Origin: Pseudomonas sp. N3-W | Lineage (GTDB): Bacteria > Pseudomonadota > Gammaproteobacteria > Pseudomonadales > Pseudomonadaceae | Assembly (NCBI RefSeq): GCF_024970185.1 | Contig: NZ_CP103965.1 | Coordinates: 1,360,001-1,424,000, forward strand | Length of the DNA stretch: 64,000 nucleotides | Reading direction: 5' to 3' | Shown here: positions 11,641-39,699 of the stretch, piece by piece | Layout of the letters: each line of letters begins with the position of its first letter | Position numbering within the stretch: the first letter of the stretch is position 1 | Notes under the pieces: generated by a model | Databases searched by the model: none | Told to the model about the DNA's origin: nothing | The model's input: the letters and a program-made list of their open reading frames with translations, nothing else | Position numbers and translations under genes: made by a program

Positions 11641-11650
11641 AGGGGACTTT

Positions 11651-21448: not shown

Positions 21449-21475
21449 TTGCCGCGTTGTTGAACGAGTGAATTC

Positions 21476-21498
21476 AGCCCACTGCGTGTGGGCTTTTT
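21476..21498 (+). terminator. Hairpin plus T-run between Mu-like sheath and tube genes
   Basis: AGCCCAC (21476-21482) pairs with GTGGGCT (21488-21494) around a 5-base loop and runs into TTTTTATTT. The tube RBS (AAGGGAG) follows at once. It may adjust tube versus sheath expression. Confidence 0.6.
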
Positions 21499-21517
21499 AT
21501 TTGAAGGGAGAAACACC

Positions 21518-22158: not shown

Positions 22159-22289
22159 TCGCAGTCGCCTATGACCTGGCCTGGTTCTGGAAGGTTGACC
22201 CCGAACAGATGATGGCCAGGCCACTGGATGTGCTCCGCGAATCGCTGGAGCACGCGCAACGGATCAATGCGATGCAGCAGGTGCAGTGA
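21862..22289 (+). CDS. gp41-41' fusion made by -1 ribosomal frameshift
   Basis: Slipping one base back at 22119-22125 extends the protein to 142 residues. It adds HECGVGAITDLIAVAYDLAW and ends INAMQQVQ. The shifted frame stops at TGA 22287-22289, overlapping the tape measure ATG by one base, as a real gene end would. Mu-like phages make the same pair of products. The shift itself is inferred. Confidence 0.78.
22119..22125 (+). other. -1 frameshift slippery site T TTT TTC
   Basis: In the zero frame the codons are agT TTT TTC. Both tRNAs can re-pair one base back, and the -1 frame then reads into the 41' extension without a stop. Confidence 0.75.
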
Positions 22290-23992: not shown

Positions 23993-25217
23993 CCGTTTGA
24001 TGCCGGCGTCGTTTCGCGGGGTCGGCTTCTGGGTCGACCAGGCGAAAACCCCGGTCGGCAAAAAGGGCCAGTTGCACGAATACCCGCAGCGCGACCTGCC
24101 GTATTTCGAGGGCCTTGGCCAACAGGCGAAGATCCACGAACTGACCGCGTTCATCGTCGGCCCCGATTGCCTGGAGCAGCGCGACAAGCTGCTTCAGGCG
24201 CTGGAGCTGGGCAATGGCGAACTGGTGCATCCGTGGCTGGGGCGCTTGCAGGTCAAGGTCGGTGAATGCGACATGACCCACACCCGCCAGGACGGCGGGC
24301 TGGTGACGTTCGCGCTGAAGTTCTACCCCGATGAACCGGTGCCGTTTCCGACGGCGGCGGTCAGTACGCAAAAGATGCTGCTGGTGTCGGCGGACAGTTT
24401 TCTCGGTTCGGCGGTGGCGCGCTTCGAAGACGCGATGACCCTGATCAAGGCGGCGCGGATCGGCATCGCCGACCTGCGCAACAGCATCAAGGACATTTAC
24501 GGGGTCATTCAGCAGCAGTTGCAGCCGCTGATCGATCAGTACAAACAGATCAGCGATCTGGTGAAAGCCGTGAAGGAGCTGCCCAAGGAAGTGGCGGCTG
24601 AATTCAAAGGGCTGCTCGGCGACATCAAGGAACTCAAGGACTTCGCCCGTGACGGCTATCGTGGCGTGATTGCCAACGTCTCCCAGCAGGTCGAAGCGAT
24701 CCGCAAGTCTGATGCGCCGAAAATCACCACCGGCAAAGACACCACTGCCGCGGCGCAAGCCCTGGCCAACCTGGTGCAGGACACCTTGCTGGTGCAGGCC
24801 GCCCAGTGGGTGGCGTCGATGCCGGTGGCCAGTGCGCCGGTCAAGTTGACTTCGCGCCCTTCGCTGGAGCAACAGGCGGAACAACCGGTCAAGCGTCAGG
24901 AAGTGCCAGTCATCGACGACTTGCAGGTGCTGCGCAAGGAACTCGATGACGCGATCCGGATGGCCGAGGACAAAGCCGATCCCGCGCACTACCAGGCCAT
25001 GACCGATTTGCGCCAGAAGCTCAAGGCGCACCTGACGGCGGTTGCATCGTCGGGTGTGCGGCTGGTCAGCAAGTCGTTTCAGGAGAGTTTCCCGGCGCTG
25101 GTCGTGGCCTACAAGCAATTGGGCGACGCGACTCGGGTCGAGGAAGTGGTTCAGCGCAACGGCATCGTCCATCCGGGCTTTCCTCCACCGAACGATCTGA
25201 AAATCTCCGGGGAGTAA
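23979..25217 (+). CDS. Mu gpN-like tail/baseplate protein (DNA circularisation N-terminal family)
   Basis: This 412-residue protein has the family start WRDRLMPASFRGVGFWVDQ and an HEYPQRDLPYFEGLG segment. The family name comes from an old phage study; in Mu-like tails gpN is a structural hub protein. Helical middle sequence spans about 130-310. The C-terminus (LGDATRVEEVVQRNGIVHPG) looks like a LysM-type module. It lies between the tape measure and gpP genes as in Mu. Confidence 0.9.
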   Translation: MSWRDRLMPASFRGVGFWVDQAKTPVGKKGQLHEYPQRDLPYFEGLGQQAKIHELTAFIVGPDCLEQRDKLLQALELGNGELVHPWLGRLQVKVGECDMTHTRQDGGLVTFALKFYPDEPVPFPTAAVSTQKMLLVSADSFLGSAVARFEDAMTLIKAARIGIADLRNSIKDIYGVIQQQLQPLIDQYKQISDLVKAVKELPKEVAAEFKGLLGDIKELKDFARDGYRGVIANVSQQVEAIRKSDAPKITTGKDTTAAAQALANLVQDTLLVQAAQWVASMPVASAPVKLTSRPSLEQQAEQPVKRQEVPVIDDLQVLRKELDDAIRMAEDKADPAHYQAMTDLRQKLKAHLTAVASSGVRLVSKSFQESFPALVVAYKQLGDATRVEEVVQRNGIVHPGFPPPNDLKISGE

Positions 25218-25220
25218 GCC

Positions 25221-26264
25221 ATGGATGACCACGACAACCGCGTTACGCTGACGGTCGACAGTCTTGAATACGGCGGCTGGAAAAGCGTTGAGATCACTGC
25301 GGACCTGGAGCGTCAGTTCCGCACTTTCAAGCTCGACATCACCTGGCAATGGCCGGGTCAGACCAGCGTGCGGCGAATCCGCCCCGGTGCGCCCTGCGAA
25401 GTGCGCATCGGCAACGATCTGGTACTCACCGGTTATGTGTTCAAGGCGCCGGCCAGTTATGACGGGCGCCAGATCAGCCTCAGTATTGAAGGCAGTTCGA
25501 AAACCCAGGACCTGGTGGATTGCGCGGCGACCAACAAACCCAGCCAGTGGCATCAGCAATCGCTGTTGCGGATTGTCGAGGATCTGGCGTCGTCCTATGG
25601 CGGACAGGTCGTCAGTGAAATCCCGGAAACCGCCCGGCTCGGCAGCCATACCATCGTGCCGGGGGAAACGGTCTTTCAGTCGATTGACCGTTTACTCACG
25701 CTGTTGCGGGTGTTTTCCACCGATGACGCTCAAGGGCGGGTGGTACTCGCCCGACCGGGCAGCGCCGGGCGGGCCAGCGATGTGCTGGAGTTGGGCAAAA
25801 ACATTCTGTCGGCCAACGCGCCGATGGACTACAGCCAGGTGTTCTCCGAATACCGGGTGATCGGCCAGCAAAAGGGCACGGATCAGAAAAGCGGCGCGGC
25901 GGTCAGCGAGGTTGAAGCGGTGTCTGCAGACCTGGGTTTCAAGCGGCGGCGCACCACGGTGATCAACGAAGGCATGCAGATCACCCCCGAACTGGCGCTG
26001 CAACGCGCCAACTGGGAAAGCGCCACCCGCATGGGCAAGGCCCTGACCACCACTTATCAGGTGCAAGGCTGGCGGCAGGCCAACGGTGATTTGTGGCGCC
26101 ACAACACGCTGGTTCGGGTCAAGGACCCGGTGCTGGAAGTGGATGGCGACATGTTGATCTCCAAGGTCGTTTATTCGCTTTCGGAGCAGGGCTCGGTCAC
26201 GACCCTGCAAGTGGCACCGCCGCATACCTTCGATGCCAATCCGACGCCACCGAAAAAAGCCTGA
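25221..26264 (+). CDS. Baseplate hub protein (Mu gpP / gp44-like)
   Basis: This 347-residue protein corresponds to the gp27/VgrG-like hub of Mu (gp44). Features include VTLTVDSLEYGGWKSVEITADL at the N-terminus, a segment with GSSKTQDLVDCAATN near residue 93, and a C-terminal LWRHNTLVRVKDPVLEVDG. The length matches Mu gp44 (about 380). It stands 3 bases after gpN with an RBS (GGGGAG). A REP pair and about 190 bases separate it from the spike gene. Confidence 0.9.
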   Translation: MDDHDNRVTLTVDSLEYGGWKSVEITADLERQFRTFKLDITWQWPGQTSVRRIRPGAPCEVRIGNDLVLTGYVFKAPASYDGRQISLSIEGSSKTQDLVDCAATNKPSQWHQQSLLRIVEDLASSYGGQVVSEIPETARLGSHTIVPGETVFQSIDRLLTLLRVFSTDDAQGRVVLARPGSAGRASDVLELGKNILSANAPMDYSQVFSEYRVIGQQKGTDQKSGAAVSEVEAVSADLGFKRRRTTVINEGMQITPELALQRANWESATRMGKALTTTYQVQGWRQANGDLWRHNTLVRVKDPVLEVDGDMLISKVVYSLSEQGSVTTLQVAPPHTFDANPTPPKKA

Positions 26265-26323
26265 GTCTGACACTCCCACATTTGTTCAGTGTGCCCACAA
26301 ACCCAGTGATCGACACCGGACCC

Positions 26324-26416
26324 TGTGGGAGCCGGGCTTGCCCGCGATGGCGGACTCACTGCCAAAGAATATATCGCCTGACCCACCGCTATCGCGGGCA
26401 AGCCCGACTCCCACAT
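26324..26416. repeat. REP pair between gpP and gp45 genes
   Basis: TGTGGGAGCCGGGCTTGCCC and an inverted copy ending GCCCGACTCCCACA enclose about 50 bases. It is the same type as the element at 18993. The rest of the 190-base gap shows nothing recognisable. Confidence 0.9.
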
Positions 26417-26453
26417 TGGTCCGCGTTCAGCCTGATTTTTTGAAGGAACCCCA

Positions 26454-26963
26454 ATGAGCCTACTGACACGCCTCCTGGCGCGCGGCACTGTCGTGCTCGC
26501 CAATTCGGCTACCAAGCTGCAATCGCTGCAAATGCGCCTCACCGCCGGCGAAGTGAACGATGACATGGAGCACTTCGAGCCCTACGGTTTCACCAGCAAC
26601 CCGCTGGCCGGCGCCGAGGGCATCGCCACGTTTCTGGGCGGTGACCGTTCCCACGCCATCGTGCTGGTGGTCGCCGACCGCCGCTATCGCCTCAAGGCCC
26701 TGGCCCAGGGCGAAGTGGCGATTTACACCGACGAAGGCGACAAAATCCACTTCAAGCGCGGTCGGGTCATCGACATCGAAACCGCGACCCTGAATATCCG
26801 TGCCAGCAGCGCCGTCAACTTCGATACGCCGGTCATCAACCAGACCGGCAAGATCGTCTCCACCGGCGATCAGATCGCCGGCGGCATCAGCCAGATCAAG
26901 CACGTGCATGGCGGCGTGCAGGGTGGCAGCGGCCAGACCGGTGTGCCGGCGGGAGGTCAATGA
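26454..26963 (+). CDS. Baseplate spike protein (Mu gp45-like)
   Basis: This 169-residue protein is the spike of the Mu-like tail. An OB-fold-like N-terminal half has GFTSNPLAGAEGIATFLGGD. A beta-helix-type C-terminal half (ATLNIRASSAVNFDTP) follows. The end carries HVHGGVQGGSGQTGVP, the HxH signature that binds iron at the tip of Mu gp45-type spikes. Length equals Mu gp45 (about 197) within family range. AAGGAACC precedes the ATG. Confidence 0.93.
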   Translation: MSLLTRLLARGTVVLANSATKLQSLQMRLTAGEVNDDMEHFEPYGFTSNPLAGAEGIATFLGGDRSHAIVLVVADRRYRLKALAQGEVAIYTDEGDKIHFKRGRVIDIETATLNIRASSAVNFDTPVINQTGKIVSTGDQIAGGISQIKHVHGGVQGGSGQTGVPAGGQ

Positions 26964-27361
26964 TGCTGATCAGTCAGAACCTCCATGCCGCGCTGACCCG
27001 CGCGGTGCTGATCAGCCTGTTCACCTGGCGCCGCGCCGCCGATGACGATGCCCTCGATGACGAGGAGCGTTTCGGCTGGTGGGGCGACACGTTTCCTACC
27101 GTCGCCGACGACCGTATCGGCTCACGGCTGTGGCTGTTGCGCCGGGTCAAGCTGACCCGGCAAACCCAGATGGACGCTGAGTTCTATGCCCGCGAAGCCC
27201 TGCAATGGCTGATCGACGACGGCCACTGCAGCGCCATCGACATCATCAGCGAACGCCTCGACGACCAGCGCCTGAACCTGCGCACGGTCCTGACCCTGGC
27301 CGACGGCGAGCGCCTGGACATCAACCCTGATAACAGTTGGCAGGTGATCTATGCCGTTTGA
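26960..27361 (+). CDS. Baseplate protein (Mu GP46-like)
   Basis: This 133-residue protein starts at ATG 26960, overlapping the spike stop, with GGGAGG upstream; a second ATG follows at once. The WWGDTFPT motif near residue 35 and the GSRLWLLRR segment are typical of GP46, the gp25-like member of Mu baseplates. It overlaps gp47 by 11 bases. Confidence 0.92.
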   Translation: MMLISQNLHAALTRAVLISLFTWRRAADDDALDDEERFGWWGDTFPTVADDRIGSRLWLLRRVKLTRQTQMDAEFYAREALQWLIDDGHCSAIDIISERLDDQRLNLRTVLTLADGERLDINPDNSWQVIYAV

Positions 27362-28394
27362 AACCCCTTCGCTGCCGGTGCTGATCAAACGCGCCCAAAG
27401 CGACCTGGCCAGCGATTCGCTGCGCCAGTCCGATGCGCAAGTGCTGGCCCGTACCCTCGGTGGCGCCGCCTATGGCCTGTATGGCTACCTCGACTGGATC
27501 GCCGAGCAGATCCTGCCGGACAAGGCCGATGAGTCGACCCTGGAACGCATCGCCGCGCTGCGCCTGAACCAGCCGCGCAAAGCTGCACAAGCGGCCAGCG
27601 GCAGCGTCAGTTTCACTGCCAGCGCCGGTGCGGTGCTCGACGTCGATACCTTGCTGCAATCGAGCGATGGCCGTGCTTACAAAGTCACTGCATCGCGCAC
27701 CACGATCAATGGCCTCAATATTACCAGCATCGCTGCACTCGATGCCGGCAGCCTGGGCAATGCCGATGCCGGCATGACGCTGATCCCGGTGCAGCCGATC
27801 CAGGGCATCGCCGGCAACAGCTTCGTCGTGCTGGCGCCGGGGCTCAGTGGCGGCATTGCCCAGGAGAGTCTGGAGTCGTTGCGCTCGCGAGTGATTCGCT
27901 CCTACCGGATCATCCCTCACGGCGGCTCGGCGCAAGACTATGAAACCTGGGCATTGGAATGCCCTGGCGTGACCCGTGCGTGGTGTCGTGGCAGTTATCT
28001 GGGGCCTGGCACCGTCGGCCTGTTCATCATGCGTGACGACGATGCGCAGCCCGTTCCGGGACCGGCACAACTGGCGGAAGTCCAGGCCTACATCGAACCG
28101 TTGCGCCCGGTTACTGCCGAGTTGCATGTGCTGCCACCGGAGCAGAAACCGGTGATCTACAGCATGCGCCTGACCCCGGACACCACCGCCGTGCGCGCTG
28201 CCGTCGAGGCGCAACTGCGTGACTTGCACAACCGCGAAGCCGGCCTCGGCGAGACGCTGTTGATCAGCCATATCCGAGAAGCAATCAGCAGTGCCACTGG
28301 CGAAAGCGACCACGCCCTGACCAGCCCGACCCTCGATGTGCAAGCGGCCAGCAATCAGTTGCTGACCTTCGGGGGTTGCGTATGGGGGGCATAA
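27351..28394 (+). CDS. Baseplate wedge protein (Mu gp47 / J family)
   Basis: This 347-residue protein belongs to the baseplate J family. It has FETPSLPVLIKRAQSDL at the start, RIAALRLNQPRKAA near residue 66, PVQPIQGIAGNSF in the middle, and IPHGGSAQDYETWALE near 190, which is characteristic of the family. It overlaps gp48 by about 13 bases. Confidence 0.95.
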   Translation: MPFETPSLPVLIKRAQSDLASDSLRQSDAQVLARTLGGAAYGLYGYLDWIAEQILPDKADESTLERIAALRLNQPRKAAQAASGSVSFTASAGAVLDVDTLLQSSDGRAYKVTASRTTINGLNITSIAALDAGSLGNADAGMTLIPVQPIQGIAGNSFVVLAPGLSGGIAQESLESLRSRVIRSYRIIPHGGSAQDYETWALECPGVTRAWCRGSYLGPGTVGLFIMRDDDAQPVPGPAQLAEVQAYIEPLRPVTAELHVLPPEQKPVIYSMRLTPDTTAVRAAVEAQLRDLHNREAGLGETLLISHIREAISSATGESDHALTSPTLDVQAASNQLLTFGGCVWGA

Positions 28395-28981
28395 GAACTG
28401 CCACGCAATATCAGGCGCAACTTCGCAGCTTGCTGCCCAGCGGTCCGGCCTGGGACCCGGAGCGCGTGCCGGAACTGGAGGAAGTGCTCAAAGGCATTGC
28501 CCAGGAACTGGCCCGTCTCGACGCCCGCGCCGCCGACCTGCTCAACGAAATGGACGCGGCTGGCGTGAGTGAACTGGTGCCCGACTGGGAGCAGGTGATG
28601 AACCTGCCCGACCCGTGCCTGGGCGCCACGCCGCTGTTCGACGACCGGCGTCTTGCGGTTCGCCGACGCTTGCTCGCAGTCGGCAGCCAGGCGGTCAGCT
28701 ACTACGTGGAAATCGCCCGCACCCAGGGCTACCCCGACGCCACCATCACCGAACTCGAAGCCCCGCGCATGGGCCGTGCGCGGTTTGGCGCGTCGCACTT
28801 CGGAACGTGGCAGGCGCAGTTCATGTGGACGCTCAACACCGGTGGCCGATTGCTGCTCGGGCGGCGTTTCGGCGCGAGCTACTGGGGCGAGCGCTTCGGC
28901 GTGAACCCAGGCAGCGCCCTGGAATGCCTGATCCACCGCAGCGCACCGGCGCACACCAAGGTGCACATCAATTATGACTAG
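28382..28981 (+). CDS. Baseplate protein (Mu gp48-like, DUF2313)
   Basis: From ATG 28382 this is 199 residues; a TTG two codons upstream is possible. TATQYQAQLRSLLPSGPAWD at the N-terminus and the end GSALECLIHRSAPAHTKVHI are DUF2313 hallmarks. In Mu this protein links the fibres to the baseplate wedge. The first fibre gene follows after 11 bases. Confidence 0.93.
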   Translation: MGGIRTATQYQAQLRSLLPSGPAWDPERVPELEEVLKGIAQELARLDARAADLLNEMDAAGVSELVPDWEQVMNLPDPCLGATPLFDDRRLAVRRRLLAVGSQAVSYYVEIARTQGYPDATITELEAPRMGRARFGASHFGTWQAQFMWTLNTGGRLLLGRRFGASYWGERFGVNPGSALECLIHRSAPAHTKVHINYD

Positions 28982-28992
28982 GGAATAGAGCA

Positions 28993-30144
28993 ATGGATTA
29001 TCCAAATAGTGTGCCCAGCGCCGGGTTGGTGAATGGGAAGTTTGTTGATGAAAACCCGTTGATGGGCACGCCGGGGTCGTTGATTCCGGCGAGTTGGGGC
29101 AACGGCGTTACGCAGGAGATCGTCAACGTGATCAAGGCCGGGGATCTGACTCCGGACGAGACGAAATACGATCAGTTGCTGCAAGCGATTCAGAGCGTCT
29201 CGGCCAAGGGCTGGAACCTGGATTCGGCGATGCCGATCGGTTCGTTGCCACCGGCAACCGTGGCCACGGCGGATGGGCGTTTGGCAGTGACGCCGATGGC
29301 GGCGTCCACCAGTGGCGGCAAGGTGTCGATTCCGGCAGGGGTGTTGATCAGTCTGGGTCAGGAAGTCGTCGCGGGGCAGGTGGGCAGAAATCGCACGTTT
29401 ACGACGCAAGCATGGAGCAGCGCGGATCTGCTGCCGACTTCTGGCTATTTTCTGCGAGCGCAGGTGATCGGTGGGGTGCTGACGTTCTACATGCAACGCG
29501 GAACGATCTATGACGCCACCCCCGACGGCCTGAAAGGCACCGTCAACGGTGCCGCCGGTGGCGGATTTCAGTCTACGCCGCTGGATATCTGCATTGCCTG
29601 GGTGGTAACGGCAGCGCCGGGGTCGGTGCCGACTGTCCGGCCGATCTACAACCGCAACCGATTGGCCTGGACCCAGACTGTCAATGGCAACGGCGTGGTC
29701 TACCTGCCGCTGGATCCCCATGCGCGGGCGGCGCGTCTGGTGGTGGGCAACCCGATGCCGCATGTCACCGGGATTACTACCGTGTCCTTTGCGCCGGGAG
29801 GATGGATGGGAGGCAACTACTCCTATCTGTCACCGGTCAGCACCGGCGCAAGTGGTTGGGATGGTTGGGGCACGGTTGGCGCCTCGGCCTGCATTTTTAC
29901 CAGCAACGTGGTCAACGACACGACCGTTTCAACCCTGACCGCCAGCTTTGATCATTCGGAATTGCGATCGCTCTGGCAGTGCTATCAGGCCGAGCATACG
30001 TATAACTCCGGCATTGCCGCGAGTGACGAGTTGCTGCTGTCGATGGGGATCAAGACCTTCTCCCAGCCGGACTATTCCAATGGTATTGCCATCAACTTCA
30101 GTTCGGCGGTGAACGTTAACTTTTCCTGGGAGTTGATCCGATGA
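28993..30144 (+). CDS. Tail fibre 1 of the Mu-like tailocin
   Basis: This 383-residue protein starts with the anchor shared by all five fibres in this unit (MDYPNSVPSAGLVNGKFVDE, then GTPGSLIPASWGNGVTQEI, about 60 residues). The anchor probably docks on gp48. The body from about 75 onward differs from the other fibres and ends in a beta-rich part with IAINFSSAVNVNFSW. It is the fibre next to the baseplate genes and so possibly the original one. The assembly gene overlaps its stop by 4 bases. Confidence 0.88.
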   Translation: MDYPNSVPSAGLVNGKFVDENPLMGTPGSLIPASWGNGVTQEIVNVIKAGDLTPDETKYDQLLQAIQSVSAKGWNLDSAMPIGSLPPATVATADGRLAVTPMAASTSGGKVSIPAGVLISLGQEVVAGQVGRNRTFTTQAWSSADLLPTSGYFLRAQVIGGVLTFYMQRGTIYDATPDGLKGTVNGAAGGGFQSTPLDICIAWVVTAAPGSVPTVRPIYNRNRLAWTQTVNGNGVVYLPLDPHARAARLVVGNPMPHVTGITTVSFAPGGWMGGNYSYLSPVSTGASGWDGWGTVGASACIFTSNVVNDTTVSTLTASFDHSELRSLWQCYQAEHTYNSGIAASDELLLSMGIKTFSQPDYSNGIAINFSSAVNVNFSWELIR

Positions 30145-30656
30145 ATGTCATTCAAGAGCTGCATCAGTTCGAGGACGGTCTTCGTCCCGCACAGCCTTCT
30201 CCCGCCCATGACTGGGACGGCGAAAAGTGGGCGCTGGGTGCCGATAAAGTCGCGCTGTTGGAACAGCAAGAAGCCGAACGCCTTTGCGTCAGCGTCGATG
30301 CCGCTGCAGACAGCGCTCGCAACCTGCTGGCCGGAGATCCGCTGAAATCGATGGAATACGCCCAGGCTGCCGCCGATGCCCAAGCCTTTTTGGACGAAGG
30401 TTATCCGAAAAAAGAAGTGCCGCTGTCGGTCGCCGCCTGGGTTGTAAAAGGGCGCACCGCCAAACAGGCCGCCGACCAGATTCTGGGCAAAGCCACACAA
30501 CTTACCGAGCATCTGCTGACCCTGCGCACTTTGCGTCTGAAGGCCAAAGCGCAAATCAAGGCGCATGTGGCCAAAGGCAATATGGAACTGGCCAGAGATG
30601 TCAGCGAAGCAGCCATCGTGGCGATTCGCAACGTGGTGAATGACTCGGCACGTTAA
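30141..30656 (+). CDS. Putative assembly partner of tail fibre 1
   Basis: This 171-residue protein begins NVIQELHQFEDGLRPAQPSP, overlapping the fibre 1 stop by 4 bases (ATGA). It is mostly helical and alanine-rich and does not show the Tfa end motif of other chaperones here. The family is common beside fibre genes in Pseudomonas phages as far as I recall. A role in fibre assembly is inferred from the fibre-plus-partner arrangement. Confidence 0.65.
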   Translation: MNVIQELHQFEDGLRPAQPSPAHDWDGEKWALGADKVALLEQQEAERLCVSVDAAADSARNLLAGDPLKSMEYAQAAADAQAFLDEGYPKKEVPLSVAAWVVKGRTAKQAADQILGKATQLTEHLLTLRTLRLKAKAQIKAHVAKGNMELARDVSEAAIVAIRNVVNDSAR

Positions 30657-30785
30657 CCCGTCGAGCTCTGCGCTGTCCCTCACGCCCACTTGACCGGGGC
30701 CGTTTTTGTTTTTGTGCAAACACGACCTGCTGCGCAGTTGTGCCAAAGGCGTTGCACGGCTTTCTTGATGACAGGGAACACACAT

Positions 30786-31820
30786 ATGGATTATCCAAAA
30801 AGCGTCCCCAGCGTTGGGCTGGTGGATGGCCGATTTGTCGATGAAAACCCGGTGGCTGGAAAACCCGGGTCCTTGATTCCGGCGGTTTGGGGCAATGCTG
30901 TTACCGAAGAGTTACTCAGTGTGATCAGCGGTGCTGGCCTGGCGCCGACGGAGGGGAATAACGGACAGTTGTTCAGGGCCTTGCAGGCGCTGATGGCGAT
31001 GGCTAGCCCAATGCGCTCATCGATCACCAACGTGGCCGTTTCCAAGGCATTGACCAGCGACGACCTCGGGCTCGTACTGATCAACGCTGTCGCTGGCGCG
31101 ACAACAATCAGTTTGCCAACAGTCGACGCTGCATTAGGTATCCGCGATGTCATTGTCAGGCGCGTCGATAACACCAGTACGCGCCTTGTCGTACAGGCCA
31201 GCGGAACGGACAAGATCAAGTTCCACACGCATCTATCTGCGGCGGGCTATCAGTTTTTGGTGTTGATGGGCGCTGGCGACTGGTGGCACTTGCGCAGTGA
31301 CGGCGCTGGAAGTTGGTGGCCAGTAGGGCGCTTTGATAGCACGCCATTGGGTCGTCCGGTCTTTGAGACAACCGCTCTGCTGAACCCGGGCGGCTATGGA
31401 CTTTTGAACAGCACGGTCTTCGCCCGTACGGATTGGCCTTGGCTGTGGGATCACGCACAGCAGTCCGGAATGATGACAACAGAAGCGGCCAGGCTCGGCT
31501 CCGAAGGGGGGTGGACCAGTGGTGATGGAGGGCTGACATTTCGCGGCCCGGAAGGGCGCGGAGAGTTCATCAGGCTGTTTGATGAAGGTCGCGGTGTCGA
31601 CTCGGGCCGCCTCTCCGGTAGTTGGCAAGTTGATATGTTCAAGTCACACAGGCATGAACTGAAAAGCGACATGTTGGGTGTTCCTTCGGGGCCAAGCTCA
31701 GTCGCTCCCGATGCTCTGTTCAATCAAGGGGCAAGCAGTCTTGGTTTTACCGAGGTGATCGGTGGTGTTGAAACGCGCCCACGAAATATTGCCTATCCCG
31801 GCAGAATAAAACTCATCTGA
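30786..31820 (+). CDS. Tail fibre 2 of the Mu-like tailocin
   Basis: This 344-residue protein has the shared anchor (DYPKSVPSVGLVDGRFVDEN). The C-terminal third has GRPVFETTALLNPGGYGL and a phage tail-collar-like end: SGSWQVDMFKSHRHELK, then ETRPRNIAYPGRIKLI. The collar-type tip differs from those of fibres 1, 3, 4 and 5. The 129 bases before it contain no gene, and no strong RBS is seen (ACAGGGAACA). Confidence 0.88.
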   Translation: MDYPKSVPSVGLVDGRFVDENPVAGKPGSLIPAVWGNAVTEELLSVISGAGLAPTEGNNGQLFRALQALMAMASPMRSSITNVAVSKALTSDDLGLVLINAVAGATTISLPTVDAALGIRDVIVRRVDNTSTRLVVQASGTDKIKFHTHLSAAGYQFLVLMGAGDWWHLRSDGAGSWWPVGRFDSTPLGRPVFETTALLNPGGYGLLNSTVFARTDWPWLWDHAQQSGMMTTEAARLGSEGGWTSGDGGLTFRGPEGRGEFIRLFDEGRGVDSGRLSGSWQVDMFKSHRHELKSDMLGVPSGPSSVAPDALFNQGASSLGFTEVIGGVETRPRNIAYPGRIKLI

Positions 31821-31874
31821 TACTGACCCCAGGCAAGTTGTCGGAATGTTTAATATTTATCGATAGAGGTATTG

Positions 31875-32444
31875 ATGACTTATTACTATGTGAATGAACT
31901 TACGAAAGAAATTACCGGTCCGGTCGAATTGCCCATTATTCCCGGTGTGGGGGTCATGTTGCCAGGCAATGCCATCGAGTTGCCAGAGGCGCTCCCTACA
32001 GCAGAGGCCGGATATGTCTGGGTATGGCGCAACGGCGCTGCACAGCAGTTGATTGACTTGCGCAATCGTCCTGTTTATCGAAAAGACAACGGCGGGATTC
32101 AGTTTTGGTATGAACTGGGACCACTGCCCGATTATCTGACGTCTAAACCACGGCCTAACGAGTATTACTTTTGGGTTAATGAGGACTGGGTACTGGATCC
32201 GGTTGCGGAACGTACAGGCAAGATTGCACAGATAAACGTGGAGCGCGACGGTCGTTTGCGTGAAGTGGTTATTCGTGTAGCGCCGTTGCAATACGCCTAT
32301 GAGTTGGGGGAGGCCTCGAGTCTTCAACAAACTACGTTGCTTGAATGGAAGCGTTATACCTTGAAGTTGGCGCAACTGGAGCAGCAAGTAGATTATCCAT
32401 TGCTCGTTGATTGGCCTCTGGCTCCCGGTTCTGTGAAGCAGTAA
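31875..32444 (+). CDS. Tail fibre assembly chaperone (Tfa) of fibre 2
   Basis: ATG 31875 has AGAGG upstream; a TTG one codon earlier is possible. The 189-residue protein begins MTYYYVNELTKEITGPVELP and has a central PRPNEYYFWVNEDWVLD, matching Tfa-type chaperones of enterobacterial and Pseudomonas phages. The end LLEWKRYTLKLAQLEQQVDYP is the Tfa signature. The gene is visibly richer in A and T than its neighbours, suggesting a later import together with fibre 2. Confidence 0.88.
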   Translation: MTYYYVNELTKEITGPVELPIIPGVGVMLPGNAIELPEALPTAEAGYVWVWRNGAAQQLIDLRNRPVYRKDNGGIQFWYELGPLPDYLTSKPRPNEYYFWVNEDWVLDPVAERTGKIAQINVERDGRLREVVIRVAPLQYAYELGEASSLQQTTLLEWKRYTLKLAQLEQQVDYPLLVDWPLAPGSVKQ

Positions 32445-32460
32445 AAACGGAGAGCGGAGC

Positions 32461-33381
32461 ATGGACTATCCAAAAAGCATTCCCAGCGTCGGCTTGGTCA
32501 ACGGTGGATTCGTCGATGAAAATCCTCTCGCCGGAACCCCGGGATCACTAATACCGGCGACCTGGGGCAACGGTGTGACGCAAGAGATTGTGAACGTGAT
32601 CAAGGCCGCTGGCCTGACGCCGGATGAAGCTAAAAACGATCAGTTGGCGACGGCCATTGGTGCCCTGGTGGACTTCAGCAAAATGAAAAACACCCCGACC
32701 ACGTTGAGTGGCTACGGCATTACCGATGCGACGGGGCGGTTGTTGGCGGTGAAGCAGTTCGAGACGGTCGGCATCACTGTCTATCGCCCTAATCCGAGGG
32801 CCAAACGGATTCGCGTGCGATTGATTGGCGCCGGCGGTTCAGGGGGTGGGTGTGCACCTGTCGCGGCGACTTATCAAAGCCTGGGCGGCGGCGGGGGAGC
32901 TGGGGCTTATACCGAAGGGCTGTTTGACGTGACGGCGGAAATGCTGGTCGGGGTTCCCATTACGCTCGGTGCCGGTGGTCTCCCGCGCAATGCAACAGGT
33001 TCGATGGGCGGTGGCGCTTCCTTTGGCGCGCTCATGAGCGCAGCGGGTGGTTTTGGCGGACAGAATCTGATTTTTCTGGCGAATATATCCGGCTTTGTTC
33101 AGGGCGGCGCTGGAGGGCAGGCTGTAGGCGGCGGCAATCTCGCCAACGCTCGCGGCGTTCCAGGTGGCTATGCAATGAGTAATACCAACTGGGGGCTTCT
33201 CTCCGGTGCCGGAGGGGCTTGCCCGTTCGACGGCGGTGGGCCTTTCACGGGCGTGAACGGTAATGGCAATGCAGGCATCAGAGGCTCTGGTGGCAGCGGT
33301 GCCTGTTCAAACAATGCATCGGCCTCGTACGTCAGCGGCGCCGGCGGCAATGCCTTTTGTGAAATCTGGGAGTACGAGTAA
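32461..33381 (+). CDS. Tail fibre 3 of the Mu-like tailocin, glycine-rich tip
   Basis: This 306-residue protein carries the shared anchor (DYPKSIPSVGLVNGGFVDEN), then NTPTTLSGYGITDA near residue 77, a shaft motif. From about residue 120 it is extremely glycine-rich: RLIGAGGSGGGC, SLGGGGGAGAY, QGGAGGQAVGGGN, RGSGGSGAC. Such tips resemble glycine-rich adhesin domains of other phages, which form polyglycine sheets. Four cysteines in the tip are unusual for this protein set. Its stop overlaps the chaperone ATG. Confidence 0.9.
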   Translation: MDYPKSIPSVGLVNGGFVDENPLAGTPGSLIPATWGNGVTQEIVNVIKAAGLTPDEAKNDQLATAIGALVDFSKMKNTPTTLSGYGITDATGRLLAVKQFETVGITVYRPNPRAKRIRVRLIGAGGSGGGCAPVAATYQSLGGGGGAGAYTEGLFDVTAEMLVGVPITLGAGGLPRNATGSMGGGASFGALMSAAGGFGGQNLIFLANISGFVQGGAGGQAVGGGNLANARGVPGGYAMSNTNWGLLSGAGGACPFDGGGPFTGVNGNGNAGIRGSGGSGACSNNASASYVSGAGGNAFCEIWEYE

Positions 33382-33836
33382 TGGCTATTTATGCTCGGGT
33401 TGAAGATGGCATTGTCGTTGAACTGATCGACACCGGTGACTATGCGATCACCCAACTGTTTGCCCCTTCTTTTGTCGCGTCGATGGTCCGTGTGCCGGAA
33501 GGCGTCGTTTTCGAGTTGGGCACTGCGGTTGAGGCTCTCAAACAGGACACCGAAGCCCCACCTGTGACCGTTGCAGGCACGCCAGAAATACCGAATGAAG
33601 AACCGGTAACGGATGAGCGTACCTGGCGCCAGTCGATTCTTTCGGCCAGCCAATGGTTGATGACACGCCACCGTGATGAACAGGAGCTTGGGCGTGTTCC
33701 CACGCTGACGGCCGCGCAATATCTGGAATTGCTGGAGTATCGACAGGCATTACGCGATTGGCCGGCGTCCAACACGTTCCCAGCAGTAGTTACGCGGCCT
33801 TCCATGCCTTCGTGGTTACTGGGTGTGGTTATCTGA
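33381..33836 (+). CDS. Tail fibre assembly chaperone (Tfa) of fibre 3
   Basis: This 151-residue protein ends with the Tfa motif LTAAQYLELLEYRQALRDWP and PSWLLGVVI. The N-terminal part (MAIYARVEDGIVVELIDTGD) differs from the other chaperones here, as expected if each matches its own fibre tip. The ATG overlaps the fibre 3 TAA by one base. Confidence 0.9.
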   Translation: MAIYARVEDGIVVELIDTGDYAITQLFAPSFVASMVRVPEGVVFELGTAVEALKQDTEAPPVTVAGTPEIPNEEPVTDERTWRQSILSASQWLMTRHRDEQELGRVPTLTAAQYLELLEYRQALRDWPASNTFPAVVTRPSMPSWLLGVVI

Positions 33837-33977
33837 CGCGATCGCGGCCAGGGCTCTTACGTCTTATTCAAATAAACCATTCACGCTGTTTGTGTTTCGA
33901 GCTCGGCGCGCTTCGAATGCCTGGCCTGGGCCTCGTGCACCTCATCGAATGGTGGTTTTTTAACTAGGAGATGCAAA

Positions 33978-34871
33978 TTGGATTATCCAAAAAGCGTACC
34001 CAGCATCGGCTTGGTAGATGGCCGGTTTGTCGATGAGAATCCGCTTTCCGGAACACCGGGTTCGTTGATTCCCGCGACCTGGGGTAATAGCGTAACGCAG
34101 GAAATTCTGGGTGTCGTTCAGGCCGCAGGTTTAACGCCGAATGAGGCGTCCAATAATCAATTGCTCGGTGCGTTACGGAGCCCGGCGTTGTTTCAGACTG
34201 CACCCCAGTTTGATGCAGGGCGAACCGCGGCCACCTCTGAATTCGTTCAACGGGCGCTGGGCAATTATGCGAATGCGCGTGGGATATCCACATCGACGCA
34301 GTTGACCGTCGCGGATGTGGGATATGCAATCGGGCTGGGCGGCAATGCCACTTTTACGGTCACCTTGCCAGACGCTGCGACGGTCCCTAATGGTGCAACC
34401 ATCAGCCTGCACTGCCGTAATAGCGCCCCGGTTACTGTTGCCAGCAAGACCGGTTCTCAGATCAGTCCCCAAGGGGCCTACCTCAGCTCAATAGTGATGA
34501 ACACGGGTGAAAGTGCAAACTTTATCCGGGAGTCAGGCACCTGGACTGTTTATGGTACAGCCAGCCTGAAGTATGCGTCGTCATTCTCCGGCATGGTGGG
34601 CAACCCCGGTTATCAGAAGTACCCCAGCGGCAACATTGATCAATGGGGCTATGGCACCACGGACGCCAACGGCGAGGTGTATGTCACGTTCCCGATTTCG
34701 TTTCCAACGGCCTTTGTTTCGGTTGTTGCGACGCATGTCGGGGGGGACGGGGCGATGGTCATCATGATCTCGGGCAGTGCGAGCCAGCAGGGTTGCCGGT
34801 TGAAAGTTCGAGATGCTCACGCTTCAGTATCGGCGGGCTGGGGCGTTACCTATTTTGCGAAGGGTTACTGA
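33978..34871 (+). CDS. Tail fibre 4 of the Mu-like tailocin, gp53-like tip (TTG start)
   Basis: The shared anchor (DYPKSVPSIGLVDGRFVDEN) demands the TTG at 33978, 7 bases after AGGAG. The product has 297 residues. A beta-rich middle lies at about 100-185. The last 95 residues (GNPGYQKYPSGNIDQWGYG to GVTYFAKGY) form the gp53-like tip also seen at the end of the P2-like fibre. The 141 bases upstream show no gene. Confidence 0.88.
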   Translation: MDYPKSVPSIGLVDGRFVDENPLSGTPGSLIPATWGNSVTQEILGVVQAAGLTPNEASNNQLLGALRSPALFQTAPQFDAGRTAATSEFVQRALGNYANARGISTSTQLTVADVGYAIGLGGNATFTVTLPDAATVPNGATISLHCRNSAPVTVASKTGSQISPQGAYLSSIVMNTGESANFIRESGTWTVYGTASLKYASSFSGMVGNPGYQKYPSGNIDQWGYGTTDANGEVYVTFPISFPTAFVSVVATHVGGDGAMVIMISGSASQQGCRLKVRDAHASVSAGWGVTYFAKGY

Positions 34872-35318
34872 ATGAACGAGTTCAATGTTTTATTTAGTGC
34901 GAGTACTTGCGGTGTCTATGTACCGGGGATCAATACGTCTGATATTCCTGGTGATGTTATCGAAATTCCGCGGGCGTACTGGGTGTCGCTGCTGCAGCAG
35001 TTGGCGGTGACGCCGAAAATGATTGGGGTGCGACCCGATAACGGATACCCCGTGCTGATTGATACACCACCCCTGGCACCGCAAGAGGCGGAAACGGCGG
35101 AGCGACGTTGGCGTAACGCACAAATGTCCGCAACAGACGCAATGGTTGCTCGCGACCGCGATGAGTTGGAAGACGGCGGCGGCACAACACTGACCACTGA
35201 TCAGTACACAGAATTGCAGGCCTACCGACGAGCCCTCAGGGATTGGCCGCAGAACTCATTCTTTCCATTCACCGAACGTCGTCCCGCCACGCCTCGTTGG
35301 TTGACCGAAATCCTTTAA
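34872..35318 (+). CDS. Tail fibre assembly chaperone (Tfa) of fibre 4
   Basis: This 148-residue protein directly follows the fibre 4 stop. It ends with LTTDQYTELQAYRRALRDWP and PRWLTEIL. Along its length it parallels the P2-like chaperone at 11651 (DVIEI, PVLIDTPP/PMLVDSPAP, AERRWRNAQMSATDAMVARD), the closest pair among the chaperones here. This agrees with the related fibre tips. Confidence 0.92.
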   Translation: MNEFNVLFSASTCGVYVPGINTSDIPGDVIEIPRAYWVSLLQQLAVTPKMIGVRPDNGYPVLIDTPPLAPQEAETAERRWRNAQMSATDAMVARDRDELEDGGGTTLTTDQYTELQAYRRALRDWPQNSFFPFTERRPATPRWLTEIL

Positions 35319-35441
35319 CAATCCTCATTTCCCGGAGAGTTTTTCGATCTCCGCCATTACCGTACCTCCAGTCTGAACGCTTGCCGAATAGGGCAGGCGA
35401 ATTCTGTCGTGCGCGTTGAATACAACCCAGGAGAAAAACAA

Positions 35442-36650
35442 GTGGACTACCCCCGAAGCGTTCCCAGTGCTGGATTGGTGAACGGCAAGTTTGTGGATGA
35501 AGACCCGATAGCAGGAAAGCCTGGCTCGTTGATTCCGGCCAGTTGGGGCAATGGCGTTACTCAAGAAATTATCAATGCCATTACCGAGGCCGGTTTAACG
35601 CCTGATGAAGAGCAAACCAATCAGTTGGCCATGGCGATCAGGCAGCTGTCCAAACCGGATCCCCTGCAGGGTTATCCGGTTCAGGTGTACCGAAAGAATT
35701 TGATCATTAACGGCGGTTTCGATATTTGGCAGCGTGGAACCTCCAATCAAGGACCCAGCGCCGGCGGTTACATTGCTGATCGCTTTCGTGTCGATTGGAA
35801 CGGTAATGCCGGAGTCAGTATTTCCCGGCAAAACTTTGTTCTTGGCCAGACTGACGTACCCAATGAGCCACGGTACTTTCTACGCTGGCAGCAAGTCACC
35901 GCTGGTAGCGGTGCAACCGTCCACAAGATTTCGCAGAATATCGAGTCCGTCAGAACGCTGGCGGGCAAAACGGCGACAGTCACGTTCTGGGCCAAGTCGG
36001 ATGCGGCGCGTCCACTCAAGGTTACGGTGACACAGTTTTTCGGACCCAGTGGCTCTGATTATGTAGAAAAAACAGTCGGAAACTTCCAGCTTGGAACTTC
36101 ATGGGCGAAGTACACGGCGACATTTCAGGTTCCTGCCCTGGCGGGCAAGATATTAGGCTCGGCTAACAGTGATTTCTTGAGGCTGGCATTCGACTTGCCG
36201 CTCAATGTCTTGCAGTCCGTCGATCTGGCGCAAGTTCAGCTCGAAGAAGGGCCTGTGTCCACGCCCTTTGAGTACCGCAGCGTTGCGCAAGAGCTGACAA
36301 GTTGCCAGCGTTATTACGAAAAGTCGTTCACTACAGGTGTTCCGGTTCAGGCGGGTAACGGCACGGTGACTTGCCTGGCCACCTTTACTCAAATTCCAAC
36401 CGGTAATACCGGGCAGTACGGGATGACGATCAATTTCCTGGTGCAAAAAAGGGTTCAACCGACGGTGCAGTCGTTTTCACCCGGAGATAACAGCAGCCAG
36501 GTCTGGAACCAGTCCATAGGCAAGGCTTGTACCGGAACCACGGTTCAAAGCCTTACTGAACGCAATATCGCCTTTGCAACGGTGACAGCCGTGGGCAGTG
36601 CCCCCGGCCATACATTGCAACTTGAGTGGACAGCAGATGCAGAAATATAG
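35442..36650 (+). CDS. Tail fibre 5 of the Mu-like tailocin, CBM-like tip (GTG start)
   Basis: The shared anchor (DYPRSVPSAGLVNGKFVDED) sets the start at GTG 35442, with CAGGAG upstream. The product has 402 residues. From about residue 85, NLIINGGFDIWQRGTS opens a jelly-roll, carbohydrate-binding-module-like domain (ADRFRVDW, TFWAKSDAARPLKVTV, VQLEEGPVSTPFEYRS). This type is known from phage fibres and tailspikes and suggests glycan binding. A further beta-rich end (about 295-402) follows. It is the last and longest fibre in the array. Confidence 0.9.
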   Translation: MDYPRSVPSAGLVNGKFVDEDPIAGKPGSLIPASWGNGVTQEIINAITEAGLTPDEEQTNQLAMAIRQLSKPDPLQGYPVQVYRKNLIINGGFDIWQRGTSNQGPSAGGYIADRFRVDWNGNAGVSISRQNFVLGQTDVPNEPRYFLRWQQVTAGSGATVHKISQNIESVRTLAGKTATVTFWAKSDAARPLKVTVTQFFGPSGSDYVEKTVGNFQLGTSWAKYTATFQVPALAGKILGSANSDFLRLAFDLPLNVLQSVDLAQVQLEEGPVSTPFEYRSVAQELTSCQRYYEKSFTTGVPVQAGNGTVTCLATFTQIPTGNTGQYGMTINFLVQKRVQPTVQSFSPGDNSSQVWNQSIGKACTGTTVQSLTERNIAFATVTAVGSAPGHTLQLEWTADAEI

Positions 36651-36662
36651 GAGTGCAACGCT

Positions 36663-36860
36663 ATGAGCTATCAACTAACGATAAACGGTGTCATTCGCCT
36701 CGCCGACTCGGCTTTTATTCCCTTGGATGAAGGTAATCGTGACTGGCTTGATTATCTGGAGTGGGTTTCGGTTGGCGGTGAATCGCTGCCGGTCGATTCA
36801 ACTTTGGATAGTAAGCAAGCGGGTCAAGGTGTTTTTGGTTTTCTCAAACGGATCATTTAA
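36663..36860 (+). CDS. Small putative fibre assembly protein after fibre 5
   Basis: This 65-residue protein (YQLTINGVIRLADSAFIPLD, then NRDWLDYLEWVSVGG) resembles the short proteins with the pattern I-R-x-A-D-x-A-F-I-P found at the end of phage fibre operons. GAGTGCAACGCT precedes the ATG. It holds the partner position for fibre 5 but lacks a full Tfa domain. Confidence 0.72.
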   Translation: MSYQLTINGVIRLADSAFIPLDEGNRDWLDYLEWVSVGGESLPVDSTLDSKQAGQGVFGFLKRII

Positions 36861-36918
36861 CAGGCAGGACAGCGGCAATGACGTGTTTTACCACTGAGGC
36901 GCTTTATCGGGGGCGACC

Positions 36919-37482
36919 ATGACCATCACGCTACAGCAACTCCAGGACATCATGCCCAACGCCCGCTCCCAAGCGGGCGTTTTCATTTCCCCCCTCAACA
37001 GCGCCATGACCCACCGCGACATCAACACTCCAAAACGCATTGCCGCTTTCCTCGCGCAGGTCGGCCACGAATCAGGGCAGTTGCAGTACGTGCGCGAACT
37101 GGGCAACAACCAATACCTGAACAAATACGACACAGGCACTCTGGCCCTGCGTTTGGGCAATACGCCAGAAGCTGACGGCGATGGCCAGAAATACCGAGGG
37201 CGGGGCCTGATCCAGATCACCGGTCACGATAACTACCGCGAATGCAGCCTCGGCCTGTTCGGCGATGAGCGTCTGCTTTCGCTGCCGCAACTGCTGGAGC
37301 AACCGCAGTGGGCCGCCGAGTCCGCCGCCTGGTTCTGGGCGCAGAACGGGCTTAACGAACTGGCCGATCGTGATCAGTTCAACTCCATCACCCGGCGCAT
37401 CAACGGCGGGTTGAACGGCCTGGAGGATCGCCTGCAACTGTGGGCGCGGGCGAGGGAGGTGTTATGCCAGCCTTCGGCCTGA
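36919..37482 (+). CDS. Endolysin, glycoside hydrolase family 19 (chitinase-like lysozyme)
   Basis: This 187-residue protein would cleave the peptidoglycan glycan strand to release the particles. The GH19 features are AAFLAQVGHESGQL with the likely catalytic Glu51, KYRGRGLIQITGHDNY near 90-105, and NSITRRINGGLNG near the end. No signal peptide is seen, so export would rely on a holin. A terminator-like hairpin lies inside codons 14-22. In the P. aeruginosa R-pyocin a GH19 enzyme also follows the tail genes. It overlaps Rz by 19 bases. Confidence 0.93.
   Translation: MTITLQQLQDIMPNARSQAGVFISPLNSAMTHRDINTPKRIAAFLAQVGHESGQLQYVRELGNNQYLNKYDTGTLALRLGNTPEADGDGQKYRGRGLIQITGHDNYRECSLGLFGDERLLSLPQLLEQPQWAAESAAWFWAQNGLNELADRDQFNSITRRINGGLNGLEDRLQLWARAREVLCQPSA
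36958..36983 (+). terminator. Terminator-like hairpin inside the endolysin coding region
   Basis: AACGCCCGCT (36958-36967) pairs perfectly with AGCGGGCGTT (36972-36981) around a 4-base loop, ending in TTTC. It lies in codons 14-22, which encode a stretch (PNARSQAGVF) that seems conserved in the family. It could act as an early attenuator of lysis-gene transcription. Confidence 0.45.
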
Positions 37483-37982
37483 TGTCCTGGCGGGTGATCG
37501 GCATCATTGTGTTGGCGGGTGTTTCGGCGGCGCTGGCCTGGCACGTTCAGGACTGGCGTTATGGCCGGCTACTGGCGGAACAGGCCATGCTGCACGCCGA
37601 GACGCTGAACCGGCTCACTTTGGCCTCGGCGACGCAACAACAGGTCGAGCAGGATAAACGTCTGGCCCTGGAACAAACGCTGTCGGCCAGTGAACAAACC
37701 CATTATAGAGCCCTTGGCGATGCCCAACGTGATCAAGGTCGCCTGCGCGACCGTCTTGCCACTGCTGATGTGCGCCTGTCAGTCCTCCTCGACGCCAGCG
37801 ACGCTGCTGTCACCTGTGCAGTGCCCGCCGCCTCCGGCCCCGGCGGCGTGGATCATGGCGCCGTACGCGCCCGACTTGACCCGGCGCATGCTCAACGAAT
37901 TGTCGCCATCACCGATACCGGCGACCGTGGACTGATTGCCCTGCAGGCCTGTCAAGCCTACATCAGGGCCCTGGCCCGCTAA
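37464..37982 (+). CDS. Rz-like spanin, inner membrane subunit
   Basis: This 172-residue protein starts at ATG 37464 with GGGAGGT upstream. A single N-terminal membrane anchor ([18 protein letters not shown], about 11-28) is followed by a long helical periplasmic part rich in Gln, Glu, Arg and Ala (about 35-100). This is the Rz layout. With Rz1 it would fuse inner and outer membranes in the last lysis step. It overlaps the endolysin gene and holds the Rz1 gene in another frame. Confidence 0.85.
37720..37935 (+). CDS. Rz1-like spanin lipoprotein nested in Rz
   Basis: This 71-residue reading frame lies wholly inside Rz. It begins [20 protein letters not shown], a signal peptide with lipobox ending at Cys18 or Cys20. 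A short proline-rich mature part follows ([15 protein letters not shown]), the hallmark of Rz1. It would anchor in the outer membrane and bind Rz. The frame is open further upstream (ATG 37690), but 37720 gives a normal signal peptide. Confidence 0.82.
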   Translation: MPNVIKVACATVLPLLMCACQSSSTPATLLSPVQCPPPPAPAAWIMAPYAPDLTRRMLNELSPSPIPATVD

Positions 37983-38062
37983 CATTTTGATCGATCCTGT
38001 GCCTTGCAAGCGTGATGCGCTCGTGTACGGTAGAAGTCATTCAGCCCGATCAGGAGAGGACC

Positions 38063-38563
38063 GTGAAAGAAATCACCCAGCTGGCCGCCGAACTTGGCAG
38101 GCGCTTGCAGGTTCTCAATGCCCATGTCACCACTGCCGAATCCTGCACCGGCGGGGGCATCGCCGAGGCGATCACCCGGATCCCGGGAAGTTCGGCGTGG
38201 TTCGAGGCCGGTTACGTGACCTACTCCAATCGCCAGAAAACCCGGCAATTGGACGTGCCCGCCGACTTGTTCCCGACGGTGGGGGCGGTCAGTCGCGAGG
38301 TGGTCGAGGCCATGGTCCGTGGCGCGCAGGACAAAAGCCTGGCGCACTTTGCCGTGGCGGTCAGCGGCGTGGCGGGGCCGGATGGTGGCTCGCCGAGCAA
38401 ACCGGTAGGCACGGTGTGGCTGGCCTGGGGGGTGGGCGAACAGGTGTTCAGCGAGGTCCAGCACTTCGCCGGCAACCGCGACGAGGTCCGCCGACAAACG
38501 GTGAAGGCCGCGCTAGAGGGGCTGCTGCGCCATGCGGCGGGAGAAATCTCAAATCAGGGGTAG
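38063..38563 (+). CDS. pncC: Nicotinamide-nucleotide amidase (CinA C-terminal family)
   Basis: This 166-residue protein is the stand-alone CinA C-terminal domain, which deamidates NMN in pyridine nucleotide recycling. The [10 protein letters not shown] motif (near residues 23-32), [15 protein letters not shown] and [19 protein letters not shown] are family marks. GTG 38063 is chosen for the AGGAGAGGA just upstream; earlier codons in the frame lack one. It is commonly called cinA in Pseudomonas and precedes recA. Confidence 0.93.
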
Positions 38564-38590
38564 GCGATCCTCAAACGCTGTGGAATAATA

Positions 38591-38606
38591 CTGGCTACTT
38601 ATACAG
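38591..38606 (+). promoter_or_regulatory. LexA box upstream of recA
   Basis: CTGGCTACTTATACAG fits CTG-N10-CAG and lies 40 bases before the recA ATG. It overlaps the likely promoter region (AATAAT just upstream). It should make recA SOS-inducible. Confidence 0.85.
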
Positions 38607-38646
38607 GTGTTGGCCGTCAGGCCTTATTGATTACGTGAGGACTTTA

Positions 38647-39699
<1,053 letters not shown>

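What the first reader, a model, noticed from the sequence alone, without database searches (positions are those of the whole stretch)
28993..36860. Five fibre-partner cassettes with one anchor and five different tips
Five genes (28993, 30786, 32461, 33978, 35442) share about 60 N-terminal residues with the core SxGLVxGxFVDEx and PGSLIPAxWGN, then diverge completely. The ends are a beta-rich tip, a collar-like tip, a glycine-rich tip, a gp53-like tip and a CBM-like tip. Each is followed by its own partner gene (30141, 31875, 33381, 34872, 36663). The anchors differ by many silent and coding changes, so this is not a recent duplication. One baseplate may be loaded with several fibre kinds, giving mixed or alternative specificities.
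Basis: partly seen in the sequence, partly recalled or inferred. Interest (0 to 1): 0.82.

Follow-up and report, generated by a model that had tools for sequence, protein, structure and literature searches.

The report
Ordered five-fibre set of a tailocin
A Pseudomonas chromosome carries a headless phage-tail weapon with five different recognition-fibre genes that share one attachment end; such multi-fibre weapons are already known, but here the fibre genes turn out to keep one order in related genomes while the set of fibres changes from strain to strain.

Summary
Five genes (28993, 30786, 32461, 33978, 35442) share a ~66-residue N-terminal anchor (59-78% identical to the first) and have unrelated tips; no other anchor was found in the genome. 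Each has a following gene, but the fifth (65 aa) has no recognised chaperone domain. The array lies between the Mu-like baseplate gene gp48 and the lysis genes of a mutS-cinA/recA tailocin island. It is not rare: 32 of 249 sampled genomes of the genus have three or more anchor matches. What I add: in 66 arrays the tip families keep one order (419 of 450 ordered pairs; shuffles at most 305), anchors go with tips, all eight families tested show purifying selection, no inversion system was found, and two last-slot families never co-occur. Array content does not follow recA, whereas gp47, gp48 and lysin do overall. Best reading: a multi-fibre R-tailocin, probably co-expressed, whose slots are refilled in place by recombination. 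Whether one particle carries mixed fibres is untested. New member of a known kind; the conserved order is the interesting part.

The parts
27351..28394 (+). Mu-like gp47 / baseplate J
   Evidence: PF04865 E 2.6e-55
28376..28981 (+). Mu-like baseplate protein gp48, last structural gene before the array
   Evidence: PF10076 E 1.5e-25; in 88 of 89 loci where gp48 was found, its match ends 13-18 nt (once 53) before the first anchor
28993..30144 (+). Fibre 1 (family F4): anchor plus beta-rich tip
   Evidence: phrog_17588; family of 49 in 89 loci
30141..30656 (+). Partner 1, fibre-assembly-like protein
   Evidence: phrog_8983; weak phrog_8258 tail fibre assembly
30786..31820 (+). Fibre 2 (family F1): anchor plus collar-like tip
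   Evidence: phrog_1858 and phrog_523
31875..32444 (+). Partner 2, tail fibre assembly protein
   Evidence: PF02413 Caudo_TAP E 4.9e-12
32461..33381 (+). Fibre 3 (family F2a): anchor plus glycine-rich tip
   Evidence: PF21722 E 1.2e-7
33381..33836 (+). Partner 3, tail fibre assembly chaperone
   Evidence: PF16778 E 1.2e-9
33978..34871 (+). Fibre 4 (family F3): anchor plus gp53-like tip; TTG start
   Evidence: PF21882 E 3.5e-15
34872..35318 (+). Partner 4, tail fibre assembly chaperone
   Evidence: PF16778 E 3e-7
35442..36650 (+). Fibre 5 (family F5): anchor plus CBM-like tip; GTG start
   Evidence: weak PF02018; modelled domain about 120-270 matches CBM folds
36663..36860 (+). Partner 5, 65-aa protein without a recognised chaperone domain
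   Evidence: phrog_34019 E 1e-23, no Pfam
36919..37482 (+). GH19-type lysin
   Evidence: PF00182 E 3.7e-7
37440..37982 (+). Rz-like spanin
   Evidence: PF03245 E 6.4e-6
38012..38563 (+). cinA, chromosomal border; recA (recognised from recall, no family search) follows in the 3' part of ORF 37936-39699
   Evidence: PF02464 E 7.1e-52; cinA-recA in the same place in EU982300

Best explanation
The array is the receptor-binding module of a Mu-like R-type tailocin. The five fibres are read through after the baseplate genes; each is folded with help from its own partner, and the shared anchor docks to the same baseplate site (near gp48, like the N-terminus of Mu gpS). A producing cell therefore releases particles with up to five target specificities, as separate particle kinds or as mixtures. 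Over evolution the tail body is mostly inherited with the chromosome, while cassettes (anchor + tip + partner) are lost or replaced in their own slot by homologous recombination, which keeps the order and changes the content. Shown here: the anatomy, the shared anchor, the conserved order, anchor-tip linkage, purifying selection, no inversion system beside it. Inferred: co-expression, docking, target recognition, killing, the recombination route.
For: Mu-like baseplate module directly upstream, lysis genes downstream, cinA; mutS, S24-type repressor, holin upstream. Anchor profile matches residues 42-77 of Mu tail fibre S, E 0.0016. 66 arrays with three or more fibres, 40 compositions, order agreement 419/450 against at most 305 in 2000 shuffles. 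Nearest anchor has the same tip family in 262 of 266, same array in 0 of 266. Partner's best hit has the same tip family in 263 of 264; without the last-slot families F5 and F2b, whose partners my longest-ORF rule does not pick reliably, 216 of 217. Median dN/dS 0.05-0.13 for anchors, 0.06-0.14 for tips in eight families. Seven of 275 fibres are under 220 aa, one of them only because the contig ends. No sigma-70-like promoter in 28300-38600 (0 against 3.9 expected), fitting read-through. Identity correlations with recA: gp47 0.66, gp48 0.76, lysin 0.72 (44 loci); F3 0.05 (27), F1 0.19 (38), F4 0.42 (30), F5 0.54 (19). Content against recA: rho 0.01, 44 loci.
Against: No expression or particle data for this strain. 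The Mu gpS match is weak and covers half the anchor. The promoter scan knows one promoter type. Content tracks gp47 slightly (rho 0.11, 66 loci). F5 is tied to the neighbouring lysin (0.74) and to F3 (0.56, 15 loci), and F4 and F5 follow recA in part, so exchange is not fully slot by slot. Among close relatives (recA 95% or more) gp47 hardly follows recA (0.06-0.27) and F4 (0.34) follows it better than gp47 or gp48 do in the same loci (0.06, 0.26). Pairs in the dN/dS and correlation counts are not independent. Order could be kept by descent with loss alone.
Confidence: 0.73

Rival explanations
1. Silent archive or switch: one fibre is used at a time and the others are stored alleles brought into use by recombination or regulation.
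For: A review describes a tail-fibre 'switching' mechanism in P. chlororaphis (passage; original not read). An invertible fibre region with invertase is reported for Erwinia carotovora tailocin.
Against: All five have full frames, start codons and ribosome-binding-like sites; all eight families tested are under purifying selection. In 66 arrays no anchor lies on the opposite strand; the one serine-resolvase match (PF00239) of the genome is 585 kb away and the nearest PF00589 recombinase about 157 kb. The six inverted-repeat pairs in the region are 18-28 nt and 71-86% complementary. Anchors of one array are no more alike than anchors of different arrays with different tips (both 69%), against conversion into one expression site. 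A purely regulatory switch is not excluded.
Confidence: 0.09
2. Mixed-fibre particles by design: each fibre has its own place or share on one baseplate, and the fixed gene order or the slot-specific anchors set the ratio.
For: Each main family has its own anchor consensus and the order is conserved, more than a simple shared socket requires.
Against: Anchors keep 26 near-invariant positions in 268 sequences, as expected for one common socket. A review reports distinct particles for three fibres in P. chlororaphis. Loci with one to six fibres exist, so no fixed set is needed.
Confidence: 0.15
3. Leftovers of several prophage acquisitions, decaying by chance.
For: The mutS-cinA site is a hotspot for phage-tail clusters; the composition differs between strains.
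Against: Low dN/dS, few short fibres (6 or 7 of 275), conserved order and insertion directly after gp48.
Confidence: 0.03

Closest known systems
P. chlororaphis R-tailocin with three tail-fibre genes (Dorosky et al. 2018; not read; known from PMC12090994 section 8 and passages of PMC12961389)
   Same: Pseudomonas tailocin with several fibre genes; a record titled P. chlororaphis EA105 has this array type with six cassettes (L103)
   Different: Three fibres reported there, five here; I could not check that the published fibres carry this anchor
Prophage 01-like element of P. fluorescens Q8r1-96 (GenBank EU982300; Mavrodi et al. 2009, PMC2647930, passages)
   Same: Same site, Mu-like gp47/gp48 genes, best anchor 90% identical, three anchor places in the record, lysin, cinA, recA
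   Different: Shorter array; in the passages seen the paper lists fibre and collar genes but not the shared anchor or an order
Phage Mu tail fibre gpS
   Same: Weak match of the anchor's second half to gpS residues 42-77
   Different: Mu chooses between two tips by inverting a segment (recalled); no such system found here
Branched multi-spike phages (Ackermannviridae)
   Same: Several receptor-binding proteins per tail; the CBM-like domain of fibre 5 resembles part of CBA120 tailspike 4
   Different: Those spikes form a branched complex (start of abstract of PMC11414711); here every fibre has the same anchor type
P2-like R-tailocin in the same island (window 7-18 kb)
   Same: Its fibre (10096-11640) also ends in a Gp53-like tip and its partner is 47% identical to partner 4
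   Different: Different anchor (PF12571) and one fibre

Membership tests
R-type tailocin (Mu-like) | Contractile sheath, tube and Mu-like baseplate genes | tested here: met
   PF04984/PF17482 sheath 19877-21448, PF10618 tube, PF07157, GpP, gp45, gp46, Baseplate_J, gp48
R-type tailocin (Mu-like) | No capsid, terminase or integrase genes in the island | tested here: inconclusive
   No such Pfam hit among the genes scanned, but not every ORF was scanned. One gene (13528-14034) gets the PHROG label 'head closure' though its Pfam family is tail tube. Nearest PF00589 match about 157 kb from the array
R-type tailocin (Mu-like) | Site between mutS and cinA/recA with repressor and lysis genes | tested here: met
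   mutS, S24/HTH repressor, holin; lysin, Rz; cinA
R-type tailocin (Mu-like) | Kills related bacteria as a headless particle | not testable with these tools
   needs induction and killing assays
Multi-fibre tailocin | Several fibre genes with a common anchor behind one baseplate module | tested here: met
Multi-fibre tailocin | Several fibres present on particles | not testable with these tools
   needs proteomics
Invertible fibre switch (Mu Gin / carotovoricin type) | Adjacent invertase, inverted crossover sites, alternative tips on opposite strands | tested here: not met

The most novel reading that the evidence does not exclude
The array is a slot system: five or six ordered places after gp48, each with its own pool of alleles and its own anchor type, refilled independently, so that a genus shares a common fibre library and each strain draws one combination; the slot-specific anchors would set the share of each fibre on mixed particles.
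Probability: 0.2. Interest if true: 0.7.

Novelty: new member of a known kind. Interest (0 to 1): 0.42.

Why it matters
A recent review calls one fibre gene per tailocin typical and lists 'Why not target more bacteria?' as an open question. This locus and its relatives show that about one in eight sampled genomes of this Pseudomonas genus (32 of 249) has three or more anchor matches, and that the fibre sets keep one order and look selected. That makes breadth of killing, and how fibre sets are assembled and inherited, testable with simple gene removals.

Tried and rejected
Phase variation by inversion: no opposite-strand anchors, no near recombinase. Recent tandem duplication or gene conversion: rejected by anchor identities (69% within arrays, 83-84% same tip family between arrays). 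Promoters or terminators separating cassettes: nothing above chance. Solved relatives by sequence: none for fibre families 1 and 2, only E 0.7-0.8 hits for fibre 4. Anchor in plasmids: no match; in phages three records. The first clustering of tips lumped families and took the lysin for the fifth partner; replaced. Even the longest-ORF rule picked a 69-aa frame instead of the 65-aa gene as this array's fifth partner, so partner lengths of F5 and F2b are uncertain. Two recA outliers (L098, L115) were dropped and the tests repeated; with them the values are 0.04 for content and F1 0.31, F3 0.05, F4 0.40. 'Vertical gp47' weakened in close pairs. The structure job for fibre 1 (alignment A3) had not finished; the fibre 5 model has mean pLDDT 49.6 and is poor outside about 120-270, so its fold matches hold for that part only.

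Full report
What is there. The window (bases 1,360,001-1,424,000 of a one-contig 6.67-Mb genome) covers most of a phage-tail island between mutS (upstream, L145:9222-11801) and cinA/recA (38012 onward; recA recognised from recall and from the order in EU982300). In order it holds an S24-type repressor, a holin and lambda-like F-type tail genes (fibre J-like gene at 132-4013), a P2-like contractile tail with its own fibre (7-18 kb), a Mu-like contractile tail (19129-28981), the five fibre cassettes, a GH19 lysin and an Rz-like spanin.

The five cassettes. The five genes share 66-70 N-terminal residues with 36 invariant columns and 67-72% DNA identity to the first copy. No other match was found in the genome. 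Four partners are fibre-assembly type; the fifth is a 65-aa protein with no Pfam match. The tips differ in kind: phrog_17588-type, collar-like, Gly-rich, Gp53-like, CBM-like. For the last, the better-modelled part (about 120-270; whole model mean pLDDT 49.6) matches CBM4, CBM22 and CBM16 structures. The anchor's second half matches the N-terminus of Mu tail fibre S at E 0.0016, weak support for baseplate docking.

How common. Of 249 genomes drawn from the genus (the window's own included), 83 have an anchor match and 32 have three or more, by my count of the table. Some matches lie outside the array, and at most 24 candidates per genome were scored. I fetched 30 of these 32 plus 10 with one or two, and 68 loci from named genomes (the best 80 of 123 matches were kept). 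Of these 108 loci, 89 remained after dropping those whose fibres all occur in another locus, and 66 had three or more classified fibres (25 with five, 20 with four, 19 with three, 2 with six).

Order. The 66 arrays have 40 compositions, yet 419 of 450 ordered family pairs agree with the majority direction; in 2000 within-array shuffles the mean was 277 and the maximum 305. The usual order is F4 (or F6, F7, F11; sometimes an extra F3 in front), F1, F2a, F3 or F6, then F5 or F2b. The window has F4-F1-F2a-F3-F5. All 31 exceptions involve F3 or F6, families that occur both first and later, with clearly different anchors and tips in the two places. F5 (27 arrays) and F2b (21) never occur together (hypergeometric 7e-7, not corrected for relatedness). 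F6 in first place never occurs with F4 (0 of 9).

Linkage. Anchors with the same tip family in different arrays are 83% identical, anchors with different tips 69% whether in the same array or not. The nearest anchor has the same tip family in 262 of 266 and is in the same array in 0 of 266. The partner's best match belongs to the same tip family in 263 of 264, or 216 of 217 without F5 and F2b, whose partners are not picked reliably. So anchor, tip and, outside the last slot, partner are inherited as one cassette, and the anchors are old paralogues that are not homogenised.

Selection. Median dN/dS over pairs with dS 0.05-1 is 0.05-0.13 for anchors and 0.06-0.14 for tips in eight families (pairs are not independent). 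Seven of 275 fibres are under 220 aa, one of them cut by a contig end. This speaks against debris and against an unused archive.

Exchange. Array content is unrelated to recA identity (Spearman 0.04, 46 loci; 0.01, 44 loci after dropping two outliers) and tracks gp47 only slightly (0.11, 66 loci). In the 44 loci, identities of gp47, gp48 and lysin follow recA (0.66, 0.76, 0.72); F3 (0.05, 27 loci), F1 (0.19, 38), F2b (0.25, 11) and F2a (0.31, 13) do so little; F4 (0.42, 30) and F5 (0.54, 19) are intermediate. Cassettes are weakly correlated with one another in most pairs (F4-F1 0.20, F1-F2a 0.20, F1-F3 -0.04, F2a-F3 0.34), but F3-F5 reaches 0.56 and F5-lysin 0.74. In close relatives gp47 hardly follows recA (0.06-0.27) and F4 does so better (0.34). 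I read this as loss and slot-wise exchange, strongest in the middle slots, on a mostly vertical body.

No switch found. No anchor lies on the opposite strand in 66 arrays; the genome's one PF00239 match is 585 kb away and the nearest of 15 PF00589 matches about 157 kb. No sigma-70-like promoter was found in the region. A regulatory switch is not excluded.

Known or new. A review states that a P. chlororaphis tailocin has three fibre genes assembled into three distinct complexes that expand its range (PMC12090994, section 8 read); others mention multiple fibre genes (PMC10598620, passages) or fibre 'switching' (PMC12961389, passages). The original paper was not held, nor was Ghequire et al. 2015. 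Mavrodi et al. 2009 described the Q8r1-96 element (passages), whose record has three anchor places. A record titled P. chlororaphis EA105 has six cassettes of this type (L103). I saw no description of the conserved order in the searches or in the passages read, but many subscription papers are not in that library and I read one review section and passages only. The locus is a new member of a known kind; the ordered slots are the point worth a specialist's time.

Noticed in passing
window 1-37982 and L145: Three different phage-tail modules (F-type, P2-like R-type, Mu-like R-type) share one mutS-cinA site, with a repressor and holin at the start and a lysin/Rz pair at the end; a second holin-like gene lies at 6608-6964.
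   Followed up: partly
window 10096-12076 and 33978-35318: The P2-like tail's fibre ends in the same Gp53-like tip type as cassette 4 (29% identity) and their partners are 47% identical: the same tip type sits on two different anchors in one island.
   Followed up: partly
window 36663-36860; last slots of other arrays: After last-slot fibres the longest following ORF is short: 82-85 aa in 21 of 21 F2b, 65-93 aa in 19 of 27 F5 and 128-151 aa in 8 of 27 F5 (frame choice uncertain).
   Followed up: partly
L062, L065, L088, L057, L126: Short fibres in arrays: 127 and 128 aa in the last place (L062, L065), 100 aa and 29 aa in third place (L088, L057), 214 and 198 aa in the first two places of L126. 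L114's 160-aa fibre is cut by the contig end.
   Followed up: partly
G002:C11:108358, G183:C1:4069244: Two genomes have one more anchor far from the array, perhaps in a prophage, a possible source of cassettes.
   Followed up: no
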